Positions 36 to 6,387 of a stretch of DNA of 6,387 nt are shown here, one piece after another (positions within the stretch are counted from its first letter, which is position 1; every line of letters begins with the position of its first letter). The notes under the pieces were generated by a model. The model searched no databases. It had not been told where the DNA came from and saw only the letters and a program-made list of their open reading frames with translations. Origin of the DNA: Actinomycetota bacterium (GTDB taxonomy: Bacteria > Actinomycetota > Humimicrobiia > Humimicrobiales > Humimicrobiaceae); contig DNFX01000258.1 in the NCBI GenBank assembly GCA_003486795.1, positions 1 through 6,387 of the forward strand. The letters are read 5' to 3'. The position numbers were made by a program, and so were the translations under genes.

Positions 36-2180
36 TTAATTTTTATAACATTTTTCTGAATAATAAGGACATTGCTTTCTTATGCATGTTTCGTTAATTT
101 CAGACTGGCTGCAAACATATCTTGTTTTATTTATGTCTTTAAAATAGTCTGTACCATCGATAAATGATTCAACTGCAGTAAGCGAATCTCTTTTACAGCA
201 TCTTGCTGCTTTAAATCTGCTGATATTTTTTAATGCATCTGCAGTTGCATTATTTGCACTTTGTCTGCCACCAGGAGTAATTGGAGTAGCATTTTCAATC
301 AAAGATATTGCAATTCCAGCACCTATTCCTGCGCCACAGGCTCCATAAAATCCACAGCTTCCCCCTGTTATTCCCTTTCCACGTTTGATTGCTTCGGAAA
401 TTTTTTTATTTCTGATATCAGGTGAGATATTATCTTTATTATTATAATAGGCAGCAATAATTACTGCAGGGACTATACTATGGTATTCAGGACCATGGAT
501 ATTCAGTTCAGGAAGTGAGAAAATGTCACCAGCCAGAGATAAAGGATCTTTTTTATTGCTCCGGACAAGAATATTTTCTATTTTTTCAAGTATATTAAGT
601 CCATGGCAGTCATCGCATACATAATGACCGTTTCTGCATCTGACATATGATTCAAATTGTTTATTACAGATGCTGCAAGTCTCCTTTAAAGAAATAGAGC
701 CAGAATATACAAGTTCTTCTCCGCAGATGACACATCCTTCTTTTTTATTTTTCAAAGAAACTGAACTATCTGTAAAAGAAAAATCTTGAGTTGAATTTTG
801 AATATCTTCAACTGTCTCTTCTGCCATTTCCTTTATTTCTTTAATATAATAATTGACCCCCATATCGATAAGGTCTTTAACGGGCCTGCAGTCTGGAGAT
901 AAGATATCACCATTGTTTTTATTTGCAGCAATGACTCCGCATCCTCCGCCGCATATGACATCATACTGGCAGTCATTACATTTTTGTATATGTTTTACAT
1001 CTCTTGATTTCCAGGTATTTACTAAGTCCATATCTAGTTTTACTTCAGGCCAGAAAGTCCCCAGACTGTATTCTTTTCTTCCGCAGCCTGCAGTACACCC
1101 ATAGATATCTCCATAAAGGTCAAAGACCCATTCAGTTTTGGCTGCAGGACAGGTATCAAAGCTTGCCATATACATTCTCTCTTCATCAATAATATTGCGT
1201 ATTCCTTTAAAATCCGGCCTGTGATATTTCGCAATTACTGGATACTTCCTGCTGAGAGAAATGAATTTCCCCCATAATTCTGTCTGGGCAAGCAGATGCT
1301 GTGGTTTTGCATAACATTCAAAAAGCTCATAATTCCTGCCTATCTGTGTTTTAAACAAACCGGGTGGCAGATCAAGCCACCCTTTTCCATTGACAAATTC
1401 TGCAAGATTGCGTATATCCTCAATATTTTCGCTATCAAAAACAGAACGAAGGTTAACAGGCATTTTATTTTCCACAGCTTTTTCAATGCCGGCAATAATT
1501 CTGTCAAATGTACCTTTTTTACCTGCTGTTGCCCTTCTGCTGTCATGTATTTTTCTGCTTCCGTCAAGAGTAAATTGTATTTCCTTGATGCGTGCCTTTT
1601 TAAGTATGTCGACATAATGAATAAAATCATAGCCATTTGTGACTATGGATAATTCATAATCGTTCTCTATGCACTTATTTACTATATACTCTGTAATATT
1701 TTTTTGTGCATTTGAATTTACAAGTGGTTCACCGCCGAATAATGTTATAAAAGGTTTCTGCTTCCAACTTGAAAAATTATCATTGGCATACTTAAAAAAA
1801 CTGTCAACAGTTTCCCTTTTGATAAGATTCAGTTTGCTTTCTACCCCCTGCTGAAAGCAGTAAGAGCAGGAGAGGTTGCACCCATAAGTAGGAACAAGCA
1901 TAAGCTGAACCTGGGAATTTAAAATTTCTTTATTAAAATCTTCATATGCTTCATCTATTGCTTTTTCCTGATCAGAGATGCTCTCATATGCATATCCTCT
2001 TTCTATCAAATAATCTGCAAATTTTTTATCATTGATCTTTCCATTACTTATTTCGTTTATCTGCAGATATTCTTTTTCACCCATAAGGTCAAAACTTCCT
2101 GAAACAGGATTAAGAATTGCATATTCATCGTTTTTTGAACTATCTATTTTAACAATAATATTATTTTTTGCTGTAATCAT
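36..2180 (-). CDS. Radical SAM/SPASM peptide maturase with C-terminal DUF5714-like domain
   Basis: This is a 714-residue probable RiPP maturase. Residues 1-90 form a small N-terminal domain (NPVSGSFDL near 24-32, RGYAYES near 61-67) like the recognition regions of peptide-modifying SPASM enzymes. The radical SAM core follows, with the cluster motif CNLSCSYC (C101, C105, C108) and GGEP (149-152) for S-adenosylmethionine. The SPASM region fits the seven-Cys pattern: C344, then G-x4-C362, then C401-x2-C404-x5-C410-x3-C414, then C431, so two auxiliary [4Fe-4S] clusters are expected. Residues about 480-714 are a second module, DUF5714-like as I recall it: zinc-ribbon-like pairs (C483/C486, C502/C505, C522/C525), an HGPEYH motif (562-567), a glycine-rich CGFYGACGAG stretch (609-618), C661-C662 and C690/C699/C704/C711. 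Total Cys is about 28. Typical SPASM maturases end near 450 residues, so the tail is an added domain of unknown function. The start at 2180 has only a weak AAAGAAA site. The likely substrate is the Cys-rich peptide just upstream. The reaction (thioether, epimerisation or other) cannot be read from sequence. Confidence 0.9.
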   Translation of the reverse strand: MITAKNNIIVKIDSSKNDEYAILNPVSGSFDLMGEKEYLQINEISNGKINDKKFADYLIERGYAYESISDQEKAIDEAYEDFNKEILNSQVQLMLVPTYGCNLSCSYCFQQGVESKLNLIKRETVDSFFKYANDNFSSWKQKPFITLFGGEPLVNSNAQKNITEYIVNKCIENDYELSIVTNGYDFIHYVDILKKARIKEIQFTLDGSRKIHDSRRATAGKKGTFDRIIAGIEKAVENKMPVNLRSVFDSENIEDIRNLAEFVNGKGWLDLPPGLFKTQIGRNYELFECYAKPQHLLAQTELWGKFISLSRKYPVIAKYHRPDFKGIRNIIDEERMYMASFDTCPAAKTEWVFDLYGDIYGCTAGCGRKEYSLGTFWPEVKLDMDLVNTWKSRDVKHIQKCNDCQYDVICGGGCGVIAANKNNGDILSPDCRPVKDLIDMGVNYYIKEIKEMAEETVEDIQNSTQDFSFTDSSVSLKNKKEGCVICGEELVYSGSISLKETCSICNKQFESYVRCRNGHYVCDDCHGLNILEKIENILVRSNKKDPLSLAGDIFSLPELNIHGPEYHSIVPAVIIAAYYNNKDNISPDIRNKKISEAIKRGKGITGGSCGFYGACGAGIGAGIAISLIENATPITPGGRQSANNATADALKNISRFKAARCCKRDSLTAVESFIDGTDYFKDINKTRYVCSQSEINETCIRKQCPYYSEKCYKN

Positions 2181-2303: not shown

Positions 2304-2411
2304 TTAGTCATGACATCCTGCTAAAATTTTTGAAGACTTGGAGCAGCATTGTGCTGTAATAAAAGTAGAACAGCATTTTTGTGCTTCAAGTTTTTTTGTT
2401 ATTTTTTTCAC
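2304..2411 (-). CDS. 35-residue Cys-rich peptide, candidate RiPP precursor
   Basis: This is a short gene on the complement strand with a GTG start, 5 bases after AGAGGAG (positions 2423-2417). No in-frame ATG or TTG exists upstream before the stop near 2466, so the ribosome binding site decides the start. Residues 1-12 are a Lys-rich leader-like segment with few other charges (MKKITKKLEAQK). The rest holds five cysteines: C13-C14, C22-C23 and C33. The two pairs sit in a near repeat (AQKCCST and AQCCSK), and the peptide ends AGCHD. It has no hydrophobic signal peptide and no membrane segment. It lies 57 bases after the methyltransferase stop and 123 bases before the radical SAM/SPASM start, on the same strand. 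That is the usual position of a maturase substrate. I infer it is modified on the cysteines or their neighbours by the radical SAM enzyme and perhaps methylated. It is not SCIFF, which has six Cys and is ten residues longer, and I do not recognise it as another named family. Confidence 0.75.
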   Translation of the reverse strand: MKKITKKLEAQKCCSTFITAQCCSKSSKILAGCHD

Positions 2412-2443
2412 TTTTTCTCCTCTTCTATGAAAGATTTCTATGT

Positions 2444-2457
2444 ACAGATAAATCTGT
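2444..2457. repeat. 14-bp perfect palindrome upstream of the peptide gene
   Basis: ACAGAT-AA-ATCTGT is a 6-bp perfect inverted repeat between the methyltransferase stop and the peptide ribosome binding site. It could be a small operator or an RNA hairpin at the intercistronic boundary. It is short enough to be chance, and no half-site is shared with the other dyads in this operon. Confidence 0.25.
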
Positions 2458-2468
2458 TTGTTTATTTG

Positions 2469-3095
2469 TTATTTCTTATATGCAATTAAAGTAATACTTG
2501 CAAAATCATAACCATTTTTTATATAGTTTCTTTTACTGACAATTCTTACATCTTTAAAACCTGAGCGCTTAATAGAATCCAGGTATTCGTTTTCTGTAAC
2601 AGCACCTCCAAAACACTGAGCCCTGGCTTCAGGATCATTTTTAATGCTGGGAGGAAGAGGTGACATTGTAACTGCATCAGAAATCACGAATCTTCCTCCT
2701 TTCCTTAATACTCTGAAAATCTCTTTAAATGCTTTTTTCTTGTTTAGGGCATGATTTATGACACAATTACTCATTACTGCATTAAAAGTATTTTCATCAA
2801 AAGGCAGATATTCAACTTCACCTTCTACAAAGTCAATGTTTGAAACACCAGAGTTTAATGCATTTTCTCTGGCTTTCTCAATCATTTCCTTAGTTACATC
2901 AAGACCGATTACTTTCCCCTCCGGCCCTGCTTTTAGTGCTGCTTCAATAGATTCATTTCCCCTTCCGCAGCCTATATCAAGCAGAAATTCCCCATTTTTT
3001 ATTGCCAGAAAATCAATATTATTGCCACAACTTAAATTGCAACTATTTTTACTTTCATCTGAATATCTTTTCTTAATGCTTTTTATTGTTTCCAT
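2469..3095 (-). CDS. ArsM-like class I SAM-dependent methyltransferase
   Basis: This 208-residue protein has the Rossmann methyltransferase fold. Motif I is LDIGCGRGN (39-47), the acidic adenosine-ribose binder is LD at 65-66, motif IV lies around VMSNCVINH (107-115), and RVLRKGGRFVISD (128-140) is the usual post-motif strand. SNCVINH with C111, and CFGGAVT with C161, correspond to the two core As(III)-binding cysteine positions of ArsM arsenite methyltransferases. An N-terminal pair C19/C23 is also present. The protein is shorter than canonical ArsM (about 260 residues or more) because it lacks a C-terminal extension. As first gene of the operon with the Cys-rich peptide and radical SAM protein, it may methylate a modified peptide (S-methylation is plausible) rather than free arsenite. 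Related ArsM-like enzymes do occur beside radical SAM proteins in anaerobes. The only possible ATG is used, since an in-frame stop lies six codons upstream. No Shine-Dalgarno is visible, only an A-rich leader. Confidence 0.87.
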   Translation of the reverse strand: METIKSIKKRYSDESKNSCNLSCGNNIDFLAIKNGEFLLDIGCGRGNESIEAALKAGPEGKVIGLDVTKEMIEKARENALNSGVSNIDFVEGEVEYLPFDENTFNAVMSNCVINHALNKKKAFKEIFRVLRKGGRFVISDAVTMSPLPPSIKNDPEARAQCFGGAVTENEYLDSIKRSGFKDVRIVSKRNYIKNGYDFASITLIAYKK

Positions 3096-3113: not shown

Positions 3114-3134
3114 ATATACCCCATATGGGTATAT
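3114..3134. promoter_or_regulatory. Perfect TACCC/GGGTA dyad operator at the operon promoter
   Basis: ATATACCC-CATAT-GGGTATAT is an 8-bp perfect inverted repeat with a 5-base spacer, starting 18 bases upstream of the methyltransferase ATG. TACCC...GGGTA half-sites resemble operators of the CsoR/CstR/FrmR (DUF156) repressors, which respond to copper, persulfides or aldehydes. Minus-strand TATATT directly downstream (about 3117-3112) could serve as the -10 element with a leader of about 10 bases. In that case a bound repressor would cover the -35/-10 spacer. No regulator gene is in the window. The dyad itself is certain, and its repressor class is inference. Confidence 0.6.
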
Positions 3135-3179: not shown

Positions 3180-3408
3180 TTAAGCCGGTTTTTTAAGCAG
3201 TTCCTTCTTTACCGTAAAAGAAAGCTGCAAAGTAGAATCTGCTATGAGCACTTTTGCATCTTTGTTTTTTTCTAGAAAAATATTTCTGGCATTCAGGGAG
3301 TTTGAATAAGTACAGGGATACTATTTCCTAAGGCTATATGCACAATTGGTAGATATTATATTTTTCCCATAATGCTGCCCAGTAAATTACAAATTCATAA
3401 GGAGTCAT
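3180..3408 (-). pseudogene. Possible decayed coding fragments in the 3096-3517 gap
   Basis: Beyond the operator dyad, the roughly 420-base gap holds no intact gene. On the minus strand two open stretches look protein-like but are too short and have no usable start or ribosome binding site. One (3408-3334, 24 residues) begins MTPYEFVIYWAALWEKYN and faintly resembles the tail of integrase-type transposases. The other (3320-3180, 46 residues, no start) contains LIADSTLQLSFTVKKELL. They lie in different frames with stops between them. They may be remnants of one frameshifted gene or chance. No terminal repeats or target duplications are visible. Confidence 0.25.
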
Positions 3409-3517
3409 CTATCTTGTTTTAGGAACTGTTCCTTCAAGCATCTTTTTATAGAATTCACGTCAATCATTAAAATAATTAAATTAATAAAACAATTTGATAA
3501 TTAATAAAATTAATTAT

Positions 3518-5182
3518 TCAGGAGTTTTTATTTTCTTTTTCTTCTTTTCTGATTATTGAAGCCAGATTTACAGTATTTTTTTCAAGCTCCAGTACTATAT
3601 TGTTAATTTCAGTTACCTGTTCAGGAGTTAATGTTTTTCCCATAGCCAGCTGCGTGTTTAATAAAATAAGTTCAAGGTCATCATGTACTGAAGATATTTT
3701 ATTCTTGATTTTCTGAATGACTTCAGGAGAAGTTATAGCCTGCCTTATTTCTTCTTCACTTTGAATGCCTTTGCTGGGAAGTTCATACTCTGATACACCC
3801 GTTATGATTTTGCATTGATAGCCGAATCTCTGTTTTGCAGCAGATGCAAGTTCCTCCTTTGCTTCTTTTTCCCCATGCACAAGAAATATTTCTCTGGGTT
3901 CTGTCTGAAAACCTGAAAGCCAGTCCAGAAGGCCCTCTTTATCGGCATGACCTGAAAATCCCTCAAGATCGTAAATCTCTGCCTGAACTCTTATTTTTTC
4001 ACCCAGAATTGTTACATATCTGGCACCCTCAAGTATTGACCGGCCGAGTGTACCCTCTGCCTGATATCCCACAAAAATAATACTTGATTTCGGGTTCCAG
4101 AGGTTGTGCTTTAAATGGTGCTTGATTCTGCCGGCTTCGCACATGCCGCTTGAAGATATGATTATTTTTGGTTCTGTATTTGTGTTTAATTCTTTTGATT
4201 CCTCTACTGTACGAGTAAACTTCAGGTTTTTAAAATCAAGGGGGTCATTTCTTTGCAGAATATAATCTTTTGTCTCTTCGTCAAAAATGTGTGCATTGTT
4301 CCTGAATACTTCCGTGGCGCTTGTTGCCATAGGGCTGTCTACATAAACCATTATTCCGTTTAGTTCCTTTTTATATTCAGGATGATCCTCGTAAAAACGG
4401 TTAAATTCGAAAATAAGTTCCTGGGTTCTGCCGACAGCAAAAGAAGGAATTACGACAGTTCCACCTCGTTTGATAGTTTTCAGCACAATATCAATAAGCC
4501 TCTGGATGCTTGCAGAATTTTTTTCATGCAGCCTGTTGCCATAAGTAGCTTCCATTATAAGGTAATCAGCTTTTTTTATTATAGTGGGATCTTTTAGAAT
4601 AGGCTTGTTTTTCATCCCTATATCACCGGAAAATACTACCTTTGATATCTCATTATCTTCCTTTACAAATATTTCTATAATAGAAGAACCCAGTATGTGA
4701 CCTGCATCGTTAAATACAACCTTAATGTTCTCATTTAATTCAAGCAACTGATTGTAAAGAACAGGTTTTAATTGTTTTAAGGCAGCAACAGCATCCTCAA
4801 ACGTATAAAGGGGGCCCCTGTAGGGCCTCCCTGCACGCTGGTTTTTTCTGTTTTTCCATTCAGCTTCTTTTTCATGTATGTAGGCACTATCCTTCAGCAT
4901 TACATCCAGAAGGTCAGCTGTTGCATCAGTGCAGTAAACAGGACCTTTAAATCCACGTTTTACAAGCAATGGAAGCCTTCCGCTATGATCTATATGGGTA
5001 TGACTGAGAAGAACAAAATCAATCTCTTCGGGATTAAAATCAAACTCTTCCCAGTTAAGTTCGTCCATTTCATCGCTGCCCTGGAACTGTCCGCAATCCA
5101 GTAAAAATTTGTTTGAACCGGTTGTTATAAGATGACAGGATCCGGTGACAGAAGTTGCAGCACCTAAAAATTTAATCTTCAT
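3518..5182 (-). CDS. Beta-CASP metallo-beta-lactamase ribonuclease (RNA specificity domain)
   Basis: This 554-residue protein belongs to the beta-CASP family of RNA-processing nucleases (CPSF73/TTHA0252 group). Zinc-binding motifs are complete: DCGQFQG (29-35), HTHIDH (61-66, with H61, H63, D65, H66), GHILGS (161-166), D187 in SGDIG, the beta-CASP motif A in EATYG (211-215), motif B around SSSGMCEAGRIKHH (343-356), motif C in FSGHAD (409-414), and the final HGE (436-438). It therefore should be an active cytoplasmic endo- or exoribonuclease. The C-terminus extends about 100 residues past the RMMBL-type region, ending in a charged tail (EEKENKNS) that may mediate RNA or partner binding. An ATG four codons upstream (5194) is in frame, but AGGAGG lies at 5191-5186, inside that longer reading. 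The start at 5182 is therefore chosen. No strong terminator follows, only AT-rich sequence. Its promoter region coincides with the palindromic element at 5191-5294, and it shows no functional tie to the peptide operon. Confidence 0.93.
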   Translation of the reverse strand: MKIKFLGAATSVTGSCHLITTGSNKFLLDCGQFQGSDEMDELNWEEFDFNPEEIDFVLLSHTHIDHSGRLPLLVKRGFKGPVYCTDATADLLDVMLKDSAYIHEKEAEWKNRKNQRAGRPYRGPLYTFEDAVAALKQLKPVLYNQLLELNENIKVVFNDAGHILGSSIIEIFVKEDNEISKVVFSGDIGMKNKPILKDPTIIKKADYLIMEATYGNRLHEKNSASIQRLIDIVLKTIKRGGTVVIPSFAVGRTQELIFEFNRFYEDHPEYKKELNGIMVYVDSPMATSATEVFRNNAHIFDEETKDYILQRNDPLDFKNLKFTRTVEESKELNTNTEPKIIISSSGMCEAGRIKHHLKHNLWNPKSSIIFVGYQAEGTLGRSILEGARYVTILGEKIRVQAEIYDLEGFSGHADKEGLLDWLSGFQTEPREIFLVHGEKEAKEELASAAKQRFGYQCKIITGVSEYELPSKGIQSEEEIRQAITSPEVIQKIKNKISSVHDDLELILLNTQLAMGKTLTPEQVTEINNIVLELEKNTVNLASIIRKEEKENKNS

Positions 5183-5190
5183 ATTCCTCC

Positions 5191-5294
5191 TCATGGGGAC
5201 GTATAATTTGGCTCATTAAAGTTACAGGTTTATAATTTTCAATTATAAATTTAAACGAAATATAATTTTGGAGCCAAATTATACGTCCCCATGA
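5191..5294. mobile_element. 104-bp palindromic element with 24-bp perfect inverted repeats (REP/MITE-like)
   Basis: The left arm 5191-5214 and right arm 5271-5294 are perfect reverse complements over 24 bases. Each reads inward as (T)CATGGGGACGTATAATTTGG and ends in GGCTC. The 56-base centre is very AT-rich and has its own nested 9-bp perfect inverted repeat (TTTATAATT at 5229-5237, AATTATAAA at 5241-5249). GGGGAC termini are typical of repetitive palindromes scattered through genomes of anaerobes and moved in trans by REP-associated (IS200/IS605-type) transposases. That link is from memory, and no transposase is in the window. The element fills almost the whole divergent intergenic region. 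It ends at the Shine-Dalgarno of the ribonuclease gene on one side and supplies the ATG of the plus-strand gene on the other. A long hairpin acting at the RNA level is the alternative reading. Confidence 0.7.
5261..5266 (+). promoter_or_regulatory. Candidate -10 box for the plus-strand gene
   Basis: TATAAT lies 24 bases before the ATG at 5291, inside the centre of the palindromic element, with TTCAAT at 5238-5243 as a weak -35 at 17-base spacing. The start site would fall in the right arm, giving a very short leader. The surroundings are so AT-rich that a chance match is quite possible. Confidence 0.3.
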
Positions 5295-6387
5295 TAAAAA
5301 AAATTGATTTGGAGAAATACTCTTCTGCGATAACCTTATCTGATATGGAAATATTTATATTTCCTGAACTTTTATACAGCCTTGTCCTTGCAAATATAAT
5401 GTCTCCTGTAATCTGGGCATGGAAAAATGATCCCTGGTTTCAGGACATTGATAATATGCCCCCCTATAAAAAGATACTGAGACTTAAACAATTCATTATG
5501 GATAATTTCGATTTTAATCTTGATCTTGAGACATGGGGGCTCACCACAAAAGAGCAAGAACTGTCCAGATTCCGTCCATTCATGGATGAAAAGATAATAA
5601 GCAGAAGCAATGCCCTGTTCGGTTATGAAGGTGACAAATATTATTTTGATGTAGATATAAGAAAGCATTTCGGGATAGATAAGTATAATTCCAACATAAT
5701 CCCCTATTGGAAAACTGAAACTGTGGAGGCAATGGAGGCATTTAAGTATAAAGATAATTATGAAAAAGGGGCAGGCGAATGTGTCTCAATTGCCACTCTT
5801 TATGCTGCTGCATTATTTATTATATGCAAAATACCTCTGGAAGATATATTCCTTATGGCAACCCCGCTTCATTCCCAGAATTTCATCGACCTGAAAGACG
5901 GAATTCTGACAAACAACAGAAGACTTGTAACAAAAAACATGTGGTTTAATGGAACCAAGCTTACTGTTAAAGCTCAGAGAGCCATGAGAAATGAACAGAT
6001 TACAATTGTTTCTCATATTTCCGGCTATATTCATACAATTTATCCTGAGGCGACCATAGATACCAAATCCTATGACAGATTTGAACAAAAGCTTAAAAAA
6101 TTCCTGACTACTGATGTTAATTTTGAAATATTGTGTAATTTCCTAAGACAGGAGACACGATTTCAGAAATGTTTCCAGATCAGGCATATTCATAATGGAA
6201 AAGAAAGATTCATTGAAGCAGAAAAGGCATATGAGTATGAGAATACAAGCTCTTCAAGATTAAACGAACATACCATGGACAAACTCCTGCTTGAGATAGA
6301 TTCATATGATTTTCATTCTGAACCTTTAAAGGACAGGTTATTTCTTGATAAGTGTGATGAATTTTTTAAAAATCATAAAATTGATTT
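5291..6387 (+). CDS. Unrecognised protein with transglutaminase-like Cys/His core (3' end outside window)
   Basis: The frame is open for 365 codons without a stop to the right edge, and the composition is protein-like throughout (WAWKNDPWF near the N-terminus, many aromatic residues). I do not recognise the family. A segment GAGECVSIATLYAAAL with C164 at the head of a helix-like stretch is followed by PLHSQNFIDLKDG with H194 and D200/D203. This spacing and setting suggest a transglutaminase-like (papain-fold) Cys-His-Asp site as in protease-like or amidase domains. That assignment is inference. There is no signal peptide or transmembrane helix, so it is probably cytoplasmic. The ATG at 5291 lies in the arm of the palindromic element and has no Shine-Dalgarno. 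The next in-frame ATG (5345) has none either. The true start may be either, or the native 5' end may have been displaced by the element. It is divergent from the ribonuclease gene. Confidence 0.75.
   Translation, partial: MIKKIDLEKYSSAITLSDMEIFIFPELLYSLVLANIMSPVIWAWKNDPWFQDIDNMPPYKKILRLKQFIMDNFDFNLDLETWGLTTKEQELSRFRPFMDEKIISRSNALFGYEGDKYYFDVDIRKHFGIDKYNSNIIPYWKTETVEAMEAFKYKDNYEKGAGECVSIATLYAAALFIICKIPLEDIFLMATPLHSQNFIDLKDGILTNNRRLVTKNMWFNGTKLTVKAQRAMRNEQITIVSHISGYIHTIYPEATIDTKSYDRFEQKLKKFLTTDVNFEILCNFLRQETRFQKCFQIRHIHNGKERFIEAEKAYEYENTSSSRLNEHTMDKLLLEIDSYDFHSEPLKDRLFLDKCDEFFKNHKID

What the first reader, a model, noticed from the sequence alone, without database searches (positions are those of the whole stretch)
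2304..3095. Candidate new RiPP system: Cys-pair peptide with ArsM-like methyltransferase and SPASM maturase
Seen: a 35-codon frame with a textbook ribosome binding site and GTG start, five Cys as CC, CC and C in a near-repeated AQ(K)CCS context, placed between a methyltransferase and a radical SAM/SPASM protein on the same strand. Known: SPASM enzymes commonly modify short peptides encoded beside them. Inferred: this is the precursor, with the cysteines as modification sites and the Lys-rich N-terminus as leader. The GTG start and small size make it easy for gene callers to miss, so it may be unannotated in relatives.
Basis: partly seen in the sequence, partly recalled or inferred. Interest (0 to 1): 0.87.

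Follow-up and report, generated by a model that had tools for sequence, protein, structure and literature searches.

The report
Conserved cysteine peptide with radical-SAM partner
A 35-residue cysteine peptide that genome annotation mostly calls hypothetical or skips turns out to be an almost unchanging partner of a radical enzyme in distantly related bacteria, nearly always travelling with an arsenic-methyltransferase-like enzyme and a thioredoxin system, so it is probably an enzyme-finished peptide that handles a thiol-loving metal or metalloid (or reactive sulfur) inside the cell.

Summary
The GTG-started 35-aa frame (2304-2411, minus) is a real gene: homologues lie in 53 of 62 loci fetched with the neighbouring radical SAM/SPASM-DUF5714 protein. 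The core AQCC[SA]K.....[ASVE]GCH[DN]-stop has eight residues invariant in 54 of 54 peptides; median pN/pS is 0.26. In 559 sampled genomes the peptide occurs in 44, all with the maturase, which 45 have. No NCBIfam or Pfam model matched it, and my paper searches found nothing on it. The cassette is methyltransferase, peptide, maturase, DUF5714 (fused or separate), thioredoxin and thioredoxin reductase, in Bacillota and Myxococcota. The methyltransferase keeps the three Cys that align with C72/C174/C224 of arsenite methyltransferase. The window's operon starts behind a CsoR-type palindrome (3117-3131) that recurs in related operons. No exporter or peptidase is general to the loci. Best reading: an intracellular RiPP-like vicinal-thiol peptide for a thiophilic element, As(III) the leading candidate. 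The modification and the ligand are unproven.

The parts
2304..2411 (-). 35-aa Cys peptide (putative RiPP precursor), GTG start
   Evidence: homologues in 53 of 62 related loci, core invariant
2417..2422 (-). Shine-Dalgarno GAGGAG of the peptide gene
   Evidence: sequence
2469..3095 (-). ArsM-like SAM methyltransferase, 208 aa, with Cys23, Cys111, Cys161 aligning with C72/C174/C224 of arsenite methyltransferase structures
36..2180 (-). radical SAM/SPASM peptide maturase fused to DUF5714, 714 aa
1926..2180 (-). N-terminal part of the maturase (residues 1-85), aligned with the N-terminus of 5wgg/5why (CteB; names CteB and RRE are recalled)
888..1151 (-). SPASM region (residues 344-431)
   Evidence: CX12GX4C, CX2CX5CX3C, C431
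39..773 (-). zinc-ribbon-like Cys and DUF5714 domain (residues 470-714), invariant vicinal C661-C662
2267..2288 (-). GC-rich hairpin between peptide stop and maturase start
   Evidence: z -4.18 for 2190-2303; hairpin of -10 kcal/mol or better in 33 of 35 comparable loci, window included
3117..3131 (.). palindrome TACCCCATATGGGTA, CsoR/RcnR-type operator-like site 22-36 bp upstream of the methyltransferase start

Best explanation
The peptide is the substrate and product scaffold of a six-part cytosolic cassette. Shown by sequence: the gene is real, it is almost perfectly paired with the SPASM maturase, and it is linked again and again to an ArsM-type methyltransferase, DUF5714 and a Trx-TrxR pair. 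Inferred: the maturase binds the short Lys/Arg-Thr N-terminus with its N-terminal domain and alters the invariant AQCC-K-GCH(D/N) core by radical chemistry (a thioether or other cross-link being the likeliest class). The finished peptide stays in the cell as a thiol/imidazole ligand (three invariant Cys plus His) for a thiophilic element, most likely As(III); the methyltransferase, which keeps the Cys triad of arsenite methyltransferases, methylates the element held by or handed over from the peptide; DUF5714 helps bind or transfer it through its own vicinal Cys pair; the dedicated Trx-TrxR keeps the thiols reduced. In part of the Bacillota and in the window a CsoR-type site would switch the operon on under thiol-reactive metal or sulfur stress, and the hairpin would let more peptide than enzyme be made. 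Rough odds: peptide is the maturase's substrate 0.9; intracellular thiophilic-element role 0.55; arsenic in particular 0.35.
For: 53 of 62 loci carry the peptide; in 6 of the other 9 the same genome has it elsewhere. Co-occurrence: order of G008, 17 of 73 with peptide and the same 17 with maturase; phylum of G003, 23 and 24 of 195; class of G001, 4 and the same 4 of 291 (Fisher on pooled counts 9e-65, with no correction for kinship). Of 53 peptide loci 52 hold the methyltransferase, 47 Trx plus TrxR, 25 DUF5714 (contig ends cut some loci). Core invariance in 54 of 54. Maturase model closest to anSME and the thioether-forming 5wgg/5why. Methyltransferase: the best solved relatives are arsenite methyltransferases; the Cys triad is kept in all 40 of the 43 cluster members that align as this family, the three others (L005_10266, L035_3940, L050_427) being different methyltransferases drawn in by my loose clustering. 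Seven proteins of 1003-1061 aa fuse radical SAM, methyltransferase and DUF5714 (P0270-P0275, P0279); the triad is visible in the four I read (P0270, P0271, P0273, P0279) and P0270's methyltransferase part scores 209 bits on the arsenite methyltransferase model. ArsP_1-family (PF03773) half-permease genes lie divergently next to the methyltransferase in L011, L012 and L014 and further off in L001 (cluster; the L011 and L001 proteins scanned, 51 bits each against 32). TACCC-N4-6-GGGTA lies within 200 bp upstream of cassette genes 18 times against a shuffled mean of 0.065. Hairpin in 33 of 35.
Against: No modification, ligand or phenotype is shown. The methyltransferase scores below the curated cut-off of the arsenite methyltransferase model (208 against 263 bits), and so does P0270. 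Most neighbours are not arsenic genes: of 138 families found in 108 neighbours I saw the first 25, with 3 ArsR-type regulators and rhodanese, DUF302, desulfoferrodoxin and others, no arsenic pump or reductase; the ArsP_1-type permeases occur in 4 of 62 loci, three of them close relatives, and PF03773 is named only 'predicted permease'. CsoR-family regulators are described for Cu, Ni/Co, formaldehyde and persulfide (abstract of PMC5016687 in the listing), not As. The operator was found in 14 of the 62 loci, some of them near-identical relatives, and in no Myxococcota locus. One sampled genome with the maturase shows no peptide (G012), as do the genomes of L007 and L010, and D. metallidurans has an extra peptide copy with no enzymes beside it (L096).
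Confidence: 0.55

Rival explanations
1. Reactive-sulfur version: the peptide carries sulfane sulfur (persulfide) on its vicinal Cys; Trx-TrxR strips it, and the cassette answers persulfide stress through a CstR-like repressor.
For: CsoR-family paralogues with Tyr where the Cu(I)-ligand His of CsoR stands (ligand role recalled) lie beside DUF5714 (G061, G063), beside Trx-TrxR (G056), about 9 kb from the peptide (G024, G057) or 17-24 kb away (G002). The one in L155 matches 7mq1 best (that 7mq1 is a persulfide sensor is recalled). Neighbours include rhodanese, a YedF-like protein and HdrABC-like genes. Trx-TrxR is in 47 of 53 loci.
Against: The one in L153 matches a copper CsoR (4m1p) best and 7mq1 only fourth. 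Another Tyr-class gene (G539) is on a different contig from the cassette. No Tyr-class gene has the operator in front of itself, whereas 12 of 24 His-class genes do, which points to the His class as the binder. The ArsM Cys triad has no obvious role.
Confidence: 0.2
2. Copper (or other metal) buffer: a radical-SAM counterpart of bufferins, sequestering Cu(I) with CC and CH motifs under CsoR control.
For: The operator type equals that in front of 12 of 24 Cys-His-Cys CsoR-family genes in the same genomes; of ten such genes whose surroundings I listed, two (L122, L142) are followed by a P-type-ATPase-like protein by eye. Cys-rich RiPPs that buffer copper exist (bufferins, PMC12452194 abstract).
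Against: Four of the same ten are followed by a thioredoxin instead (L118, L124, L133, L140, by eye). I saw no copper ATPase among the families listed for cassette neighbours (first 25 of 138). Most MNIO-modified precursors have Sec signals (abstract); this peptide has none by eye.
Confidence: 0.12
3. A redox or structural thiol peptide that is not modified; the SPASM enzyme acts on another target.
For: No modification is shown; a second peptide gene stands alone in D. metallidurans (L096).
Against: Peptide and maturase co-occur almost perfectly and are often adjacent; solved enzymes of this fold include peptide and protein modifiers. The lone copy sits in a genome that has the cassette.
Confidence: 0.08
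4. A secreted antimicrobial or signalling RiPP.
For: Sactipeptide-maturase-like fold; ABC, MFS or ArsP_1-type transporter genes lie near the cassette in a few loci each (clusters in 3-4 loci).
Against: No transporter is general to the loci, and no peptidase appears among the clusters and families I saw (lists were capped). Core frozen across phyla, unlike antagonistic peptides.
Confidence: 0.05

Closest known systems
CteA/CteB (SCIFF-type ranthipeptide system; 5wgg, 5why) and PapB; names recalled
   Same: SPASM maturase with an extra N-terminal domain; short Cys peptide encoded nearby; best solved relative by sequence and among the best by fold.
   Different: Maturase far below the NCBIfam cut-offs (TIGR03974 85 of 425; NF047865 114 of 340 bits); peptide matches no NCBIfam model; extra methyltransferase, DUF5714 and Trx-TrxR.
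NF038107 CefB and TIGR04463 SPASM maturases
   Same: Best NCBIfam scores of the maturase.
   Different: 142 of 600 and 135 of 525 bits needed.
Arsenite methyltransferase ArsM (PRK11873/NF008823; 5evj, 4fsd)
   Same: Fold and the three Cys aligned with C72, C174, C224.
   Different: Shorter (208 aa), below the curated cut-off, tied to a peptide operon.
MbdU, TrsS and ArsM-type selenoprotein families (NF045648, NF045646, NF041536/7)
   Same: DUF5714 matches MbdU; DUF5714 is also fused to TrsS (P0244) and to a radical SAM-methyltransferase protein (P0270). PMC13188914 lists MbdU as a double selenoprotein with motif CU (passage).
   Different: No peptide partner is mentioned in the one passage I saw; the MbdU and ArsM-selenoprotein models score the window proteins below cut-off.
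Bufferins (MNIO-modified copper-binding RiPPs; PMC12452194, abstract)
   Same: Cys peptides finished by an oxidative metalloenzyme, linked to metal stress.
   Different: Different enzyme superfamily, Sec signals, different motifs.

Membership tests
Radical SAM/SPASM peptide-modifying (RaS-RiPP) systems | Maturase with CX3CX2C and SPASM cluster motif | tested here: met
   Pfam PF04055 80 bits
Radical SAM/SPASM peptide-modifying (RaS-RiPP) systems | Short precursor encoded near the maturase and co-inherited with it | tested here: met
Radical SAM/SPASM peptide-modifying (RaS-RiPP) systems | Post-translational modification of the peptide | not testable with these tools
   needs co-expression and MS
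Radical SAM/SPASM peptide-modifying (RaS-RiPP) systems | Leader removal by a peptidase | tested here: inconclusive
   no peptidase among the recurrent clusters looked at or the 25 of 138 families listed; others not excluded
SCIFF / six-Cys-in-45 peptides (TIGR03973/TIGR03974) | Six Cys in about 45 residues and maturase above TIGR03974 cut-off | tested here: not met
   five Cys in 35; maturase 85.2 against 425 bits
PapB-type ranthipeptide maturases (NF047865) | Maturase above model cut-off | tested here: not met
   113.7 against 340 bits
Arsenite methyltransferase ArsM (NF008823) | Score above curated cut-off | tested here: not met
   208.5 against 263 bits
Arsenite methyltransferase ArsM (NF008823) | As(III)-binding Cys triad | tested here: met
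   Cys23, 111, 161 align with C72, C174, C224; Cys in 40 of 40 members that align as this family, 3 of 43 left out as different proteins; role of the triad recalled
Arsenite methyltransferase ArsM (NF008823) | Methylates As(III) | not testable with these tools
   needs assay
CsoR/RcnR (DUF156) regulon | G/C-run pseudopalindrome with TAC/GTA ends in the promoter | tested here: met
   window 3117-3131; 18 sites against 0.065 expected; motif type per PMC10318464 passages
CsoR/RcnR (DUF156) regulon | Binding by a DUF156 repressor | not testable with these tools
   repressor for the window unknown; no genome held
Bufferins | MNIO (DUF692) enzyme and Sec signal peptide | tested here: not met
   maturase is radical SAM; the 35-aa peptide has a Lys-rich start and no hydrophobic signal by eye
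L-cysteine desulfidase/SDH-alpha fold for DUF5714 | Structural or profile similarity | tested here: inconclusive

The most novel reading that the evidence does not exclude
A ribosomal, radical-enzyme-finished peptide cofactor for metalloid chemistry: the modified CC/CH core holds As(III) (or a similar element) as an intracellular carrier on which an ArsM-type enzyme acts, regenerated by its own thioredoxin pair. It would be a frozen, housekeeping-like RiPP spread over at least Bacillota and Myxococcota, with DUF5714 as a new metal(loid)-relay domain, and the first RiPP dedicated to metalloid methylation.
Probability: 0.3. Interest if true: 0.9.

Novelty: new variant of a known kind. Interest (0 to 1): 0.74.

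Why it matters
A peptide this small with a core this constant across phyla is rare; such RiPPs (pyrroloquinoline quinone, mycofactocin) tend to be cofactors rather than antibiotics (recalled). It gives a candidate substrate to a large orphan maturase family (2708 proteins at E 1e-3 or better among the 7990 candidates scored; that list may include more distant radical SAM proteins, and how many have the peptide was not counted), ties the little-studied DUF5714 domain to it, and makes directly testable how these bacteria handle arsenic, copper or reactive sulfur with peptides.

Tried and rejected
No match of the peptide in NCBIfam (window peptide at E 1; four homologues at E 10: one chance-level hit, VcpD, E 0.22) or Pfam (window peptide at E 1). 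tblastn of the window peptide at E 1 found no plasmid record. No Rfam family in the window.

Selenium link through SelD: two AIR-synthase neighbours looked at one by one are HypE over the cut-off (L005) and a protein over no cut-off (L004); dropped. Arsenic operon context: looked for among neighbours; only ArsR-type regulators and ArsP_1-type half-permeases were seen, in few loci (no NCBIfam match for the permeases). I had first written that no exporter recurs; a recheck of the recurrent clusters showed these permeases, an ABC ATPase cluster (4 loci) and an MFS cluster (3 loci), and the text was mended.

Assigning the repressor: two CsoR-family classes, neither can be tied to the operator by sequence alone. 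A first regular expression for this returned nothing and was rewritten.

Literature, held library only: DUF5714 0 papers; peptide motif strings 0 papers; five-of-six-term search on radical SAM, arsenic and thioredoxin reductase 0 papers; other term sets: listings read, nothing on this system in what was shown. The MbdU/UXPK search gave one relevant paper, one passage read. Bufferin search: listing, and abstract of PMC12452194. CsoR/CstR: listing, and passages of PMC10318464 and PMC5480029.

Full report
What is there. The window holds, on the minus strand, methyltransferase (2469-3095), peptide (2304-2411) and radical SAM/SPASM-DUF5714 protein (36-2180). The peptide frame starts with GTG behind GAGGAG. 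No genome is held for the window; its maturase is 65% identical to one from Candidatus Humimicrobiaceae, an Actinomycetota family, so the host may belong there, but this is a guess from one protein.

Is the peptide real. With an alignment of 27 maturases I fetched 62 loci. Thirty-five of them (Clostridia and relatives) showed a short frame ending in AQCC(S/A)K...GCH(D/N) just upstream of the maturase, and a search of whole loci found it in 18 more, titled Myxococcales, Anaeromyxobacter, Deltaproteobacteria or Proteobacteria, on either strand and up to a few kilobases away: 53 of 62 in all, 54 peptides with the window, 46 distinct (one of the 46, L013, was started at an internal GTG by my script, its likely start being the ATG listed). 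The nine without: L007, L010, L016, L037, L050, L051, L052, L061, L062; in six of these genomes it is elsewhere, in three it was not found (L007, L010, L052), two of which have contigs that end close to or inside the start of the maturase gene (L007, L010). Over the last 16 codons A, Q, C, C, K, G, C, H are the same in 54 of 54, while their codons vary. Nei-Gojobori type counts on 256 equal-length pairs (DNA identity 60-99.9%, pairs without synonymous change dropped; many pairs share ancestry) give median pN/pS 0.26; 87% lie under 0.5; 14 pairs with the window run from 0.16 to 0.60.

How widespread. A profile search found 898 proteins at E 10 or better (E-values of the 120 listed 1.5e-13 to 3.5e-11); I saw those 120, none with a Pfam domain, names where given only 'hypothetical protein'; 120 of 120 match the core and 119 have a CC before it. 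Sampling genomes around three centres chosen because they hold the cassette (so prevalence is inflated): order of G008 17 of 73, phylum of G003 23 of 195, class of G001 4 of 291 have the peptide. With the maturase profile at E 1e-60 there were 21, 26 and 7 genomes; leaving out those that match only the DUF5714 part (4, 2 and 3) leaves 17, 24 and 4. All 44 peptide genomes are among these 45; the odd one is G012. G343 and G371 gave identical values and may be near-duplicates. Two peptide matches in the Myxococcota sample are weak (G093, G277; E 5e-7 and 9e-6); on inspection they are core-bearing peptides just upstream of the maturase that lack the first CC pair (L089, L090).

What travels with it. 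tblastn layouts over 77 stretches show the methyltransferase in 52 of 53 peptide loci, same strand as the peptide in 49, thioredoxin plus thioredoxin reductase in 47, DUF5714 in 25. In part of the Bacillota DUF5714 is fused to the maturase, in others it is a gene of its own, sometimes far off. The thioredoxin active sites I read are CPPC, CAPC or CSPC; three Bacillota proteins read are thioredoxin-reductase fusions. Other neighbours differ by lineage: desulfoferrodoxin, rhodanese, DUF302, Nitro_FeMo-Co, DUF134, ArsR type. Recurrent transporter clusters exist in few loci only: ArsP_1-family half-permeases in L001, L011, L012, L014 (in the last three divergent from and next to the methyltransferase), an ABC ATPase in 4 loci, an MFS protein in 3. 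I scanned representatives, not every member.

Regulation. Between peptide stop and maturase start there is a stable hairpin: 33 of 35 loci where the peptide lies directly upstream (window included) have one of -10 kcal/mol or better, L020 and L035 not (no shuffled control for the set); the window region folds 4.2 SD better than shuffles. Long T-runs are not evident, so I read it as attenuation or mRNA protection, by inference. A palindrome TACCC-N4-6-GGGTA lies within 200 bp upstream of methyltransferase, thioredoxin, stand-alone DUF5714 or lone-peptide genes 18 times (14 of 62 loci, 3 of 14 extra stretches, the window) against a mean of 0.065 and a maximum of 2 in 200 mononucleotide shuffles of those windows; 23 sites in 803,090 bases in all. 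It was not found in Myxococcota or in the Sinanaerobacter-like and Thermoanaerobacterium loci under this pattern. Such G/C-run pseudopalindromes, and TAC/GTA ends, are described for CsoR-RcnR family regulators (PMC10318464, passages). All 15 genomes checked have DUF156 proteins. Among 34 frames read (two genes twice), 24 have Cys-His-Cys and 10 have Tyr for the His; 12 of the His class have the same kind of operator in front of their own gene, none of the Tyr class. The Tyr class sits beside DUF5714 in G061 and G063, beside Trx-TrxR in G056, about 9 kb from the peptide in G024 and G057, 17-24 kb away in G002, and on another contig in G539. Best solved matches of two of them disagree: 7mq1 for L155, the copper CsoR 4m1p for L153. 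The inducer is therefore open.

Reading. Solved SPASM enzymes of this fold include peptide and protein modifiers; the partnership is as tight as sequence data can show; no export machinery is general; the core is frozen to the last residue; its company is thiol redox, an ArsM-type enzyme and a CsoR-type regulon. I therefore commit to an intracellular, radical-modified thiol peptide for a thiophilic element, As(III) first, with reactive sulfur and copper as the serious rivals. Which bonds are formed, and on which ligand it acts, is not shown.

Novelty. It is a RiPP-like radical SAM pair, so not a new kind; but a new, unnamed family with a cassette not described in what my paper searches showed and matched by no model of NCBIfam release 20 or Pfam at the thresholds used. 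Most subscription papers and bioRxiv-only preprints are not in the library.

Noticed in passing
window 5191-5214 and 5271-5294: Perfect 24-nt inverted repeat (TCATGGGGACGTATAATTTGGCTC and its complement), 56 nt apart, between the divergent beta-CASP nuclease gene and the gene at 5291, reaching into the start region of both; could be an insertion-element or REP-like remnant.
   Followed up: partly
window 3518-5194: Beta-CASP metallo-hydrolase (MBL, Beta-Casp, RMMBL) close to aCPSF1 and, by best NCBIfam score but below cut-off (456 of 800 bits), to the type VII CRISPR protein Cas14.
   Followed up: no
window 5291-6385: 365-aa frame running off the window with no NCBIfam match and only weak sub-threshold Pfam matches; reads like a transglutaminase-type protein by eye (last point is recall).
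   Followed up: no
window 3190-3480: AT-rich gap between the operator-like site and the beta-CASP gene without a frame of 30 aa or more in the ORF list; not analysed beyond a repeat search.
   Followed up: no
L096 (G002 contig 17, about 6868, minus): Second, lone peptide gene in Desulfosporosinus metallidurans with its own TACCC-N5-GGGTA site and no cassette enzyme genes beside it.
   Followed up: partly
P0270-P0275, P0279: Proteins of about 1000 aa fusing radical SAM, methyltransferase and DUF5714; CC motifs occur in linkers of some of those read; one is from Prosthecochloris sp. GSB1.
   Followed up: partly
Maturase linker, residues about 455-480 and homologues in A1: The linker before DUF5714 carries CC motifs in many homologues (for example NMCCG, NLCCE, NECCS), absent in the window protein.
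   Followed up: no
L118, L124, L133, L140: A Cys-His-Cys CsoR-family gene next to an aspartyl-tRNA synthetase-like gene and followed by a thioredoxin gene, with the same kind of operator in front: a CsoR-thioredoxin unit (gene names by eye).
   Followed up: partly
L011, L012, L014 (upstream of the methyltransferase), L001: Pairs or single copies of ArsP_1-family half-permeases (PF03773) near the cassette; L098, from the genome of L016, has a similar pair, one half scanned and below the Pfam cut-off.
   Followed up: partly
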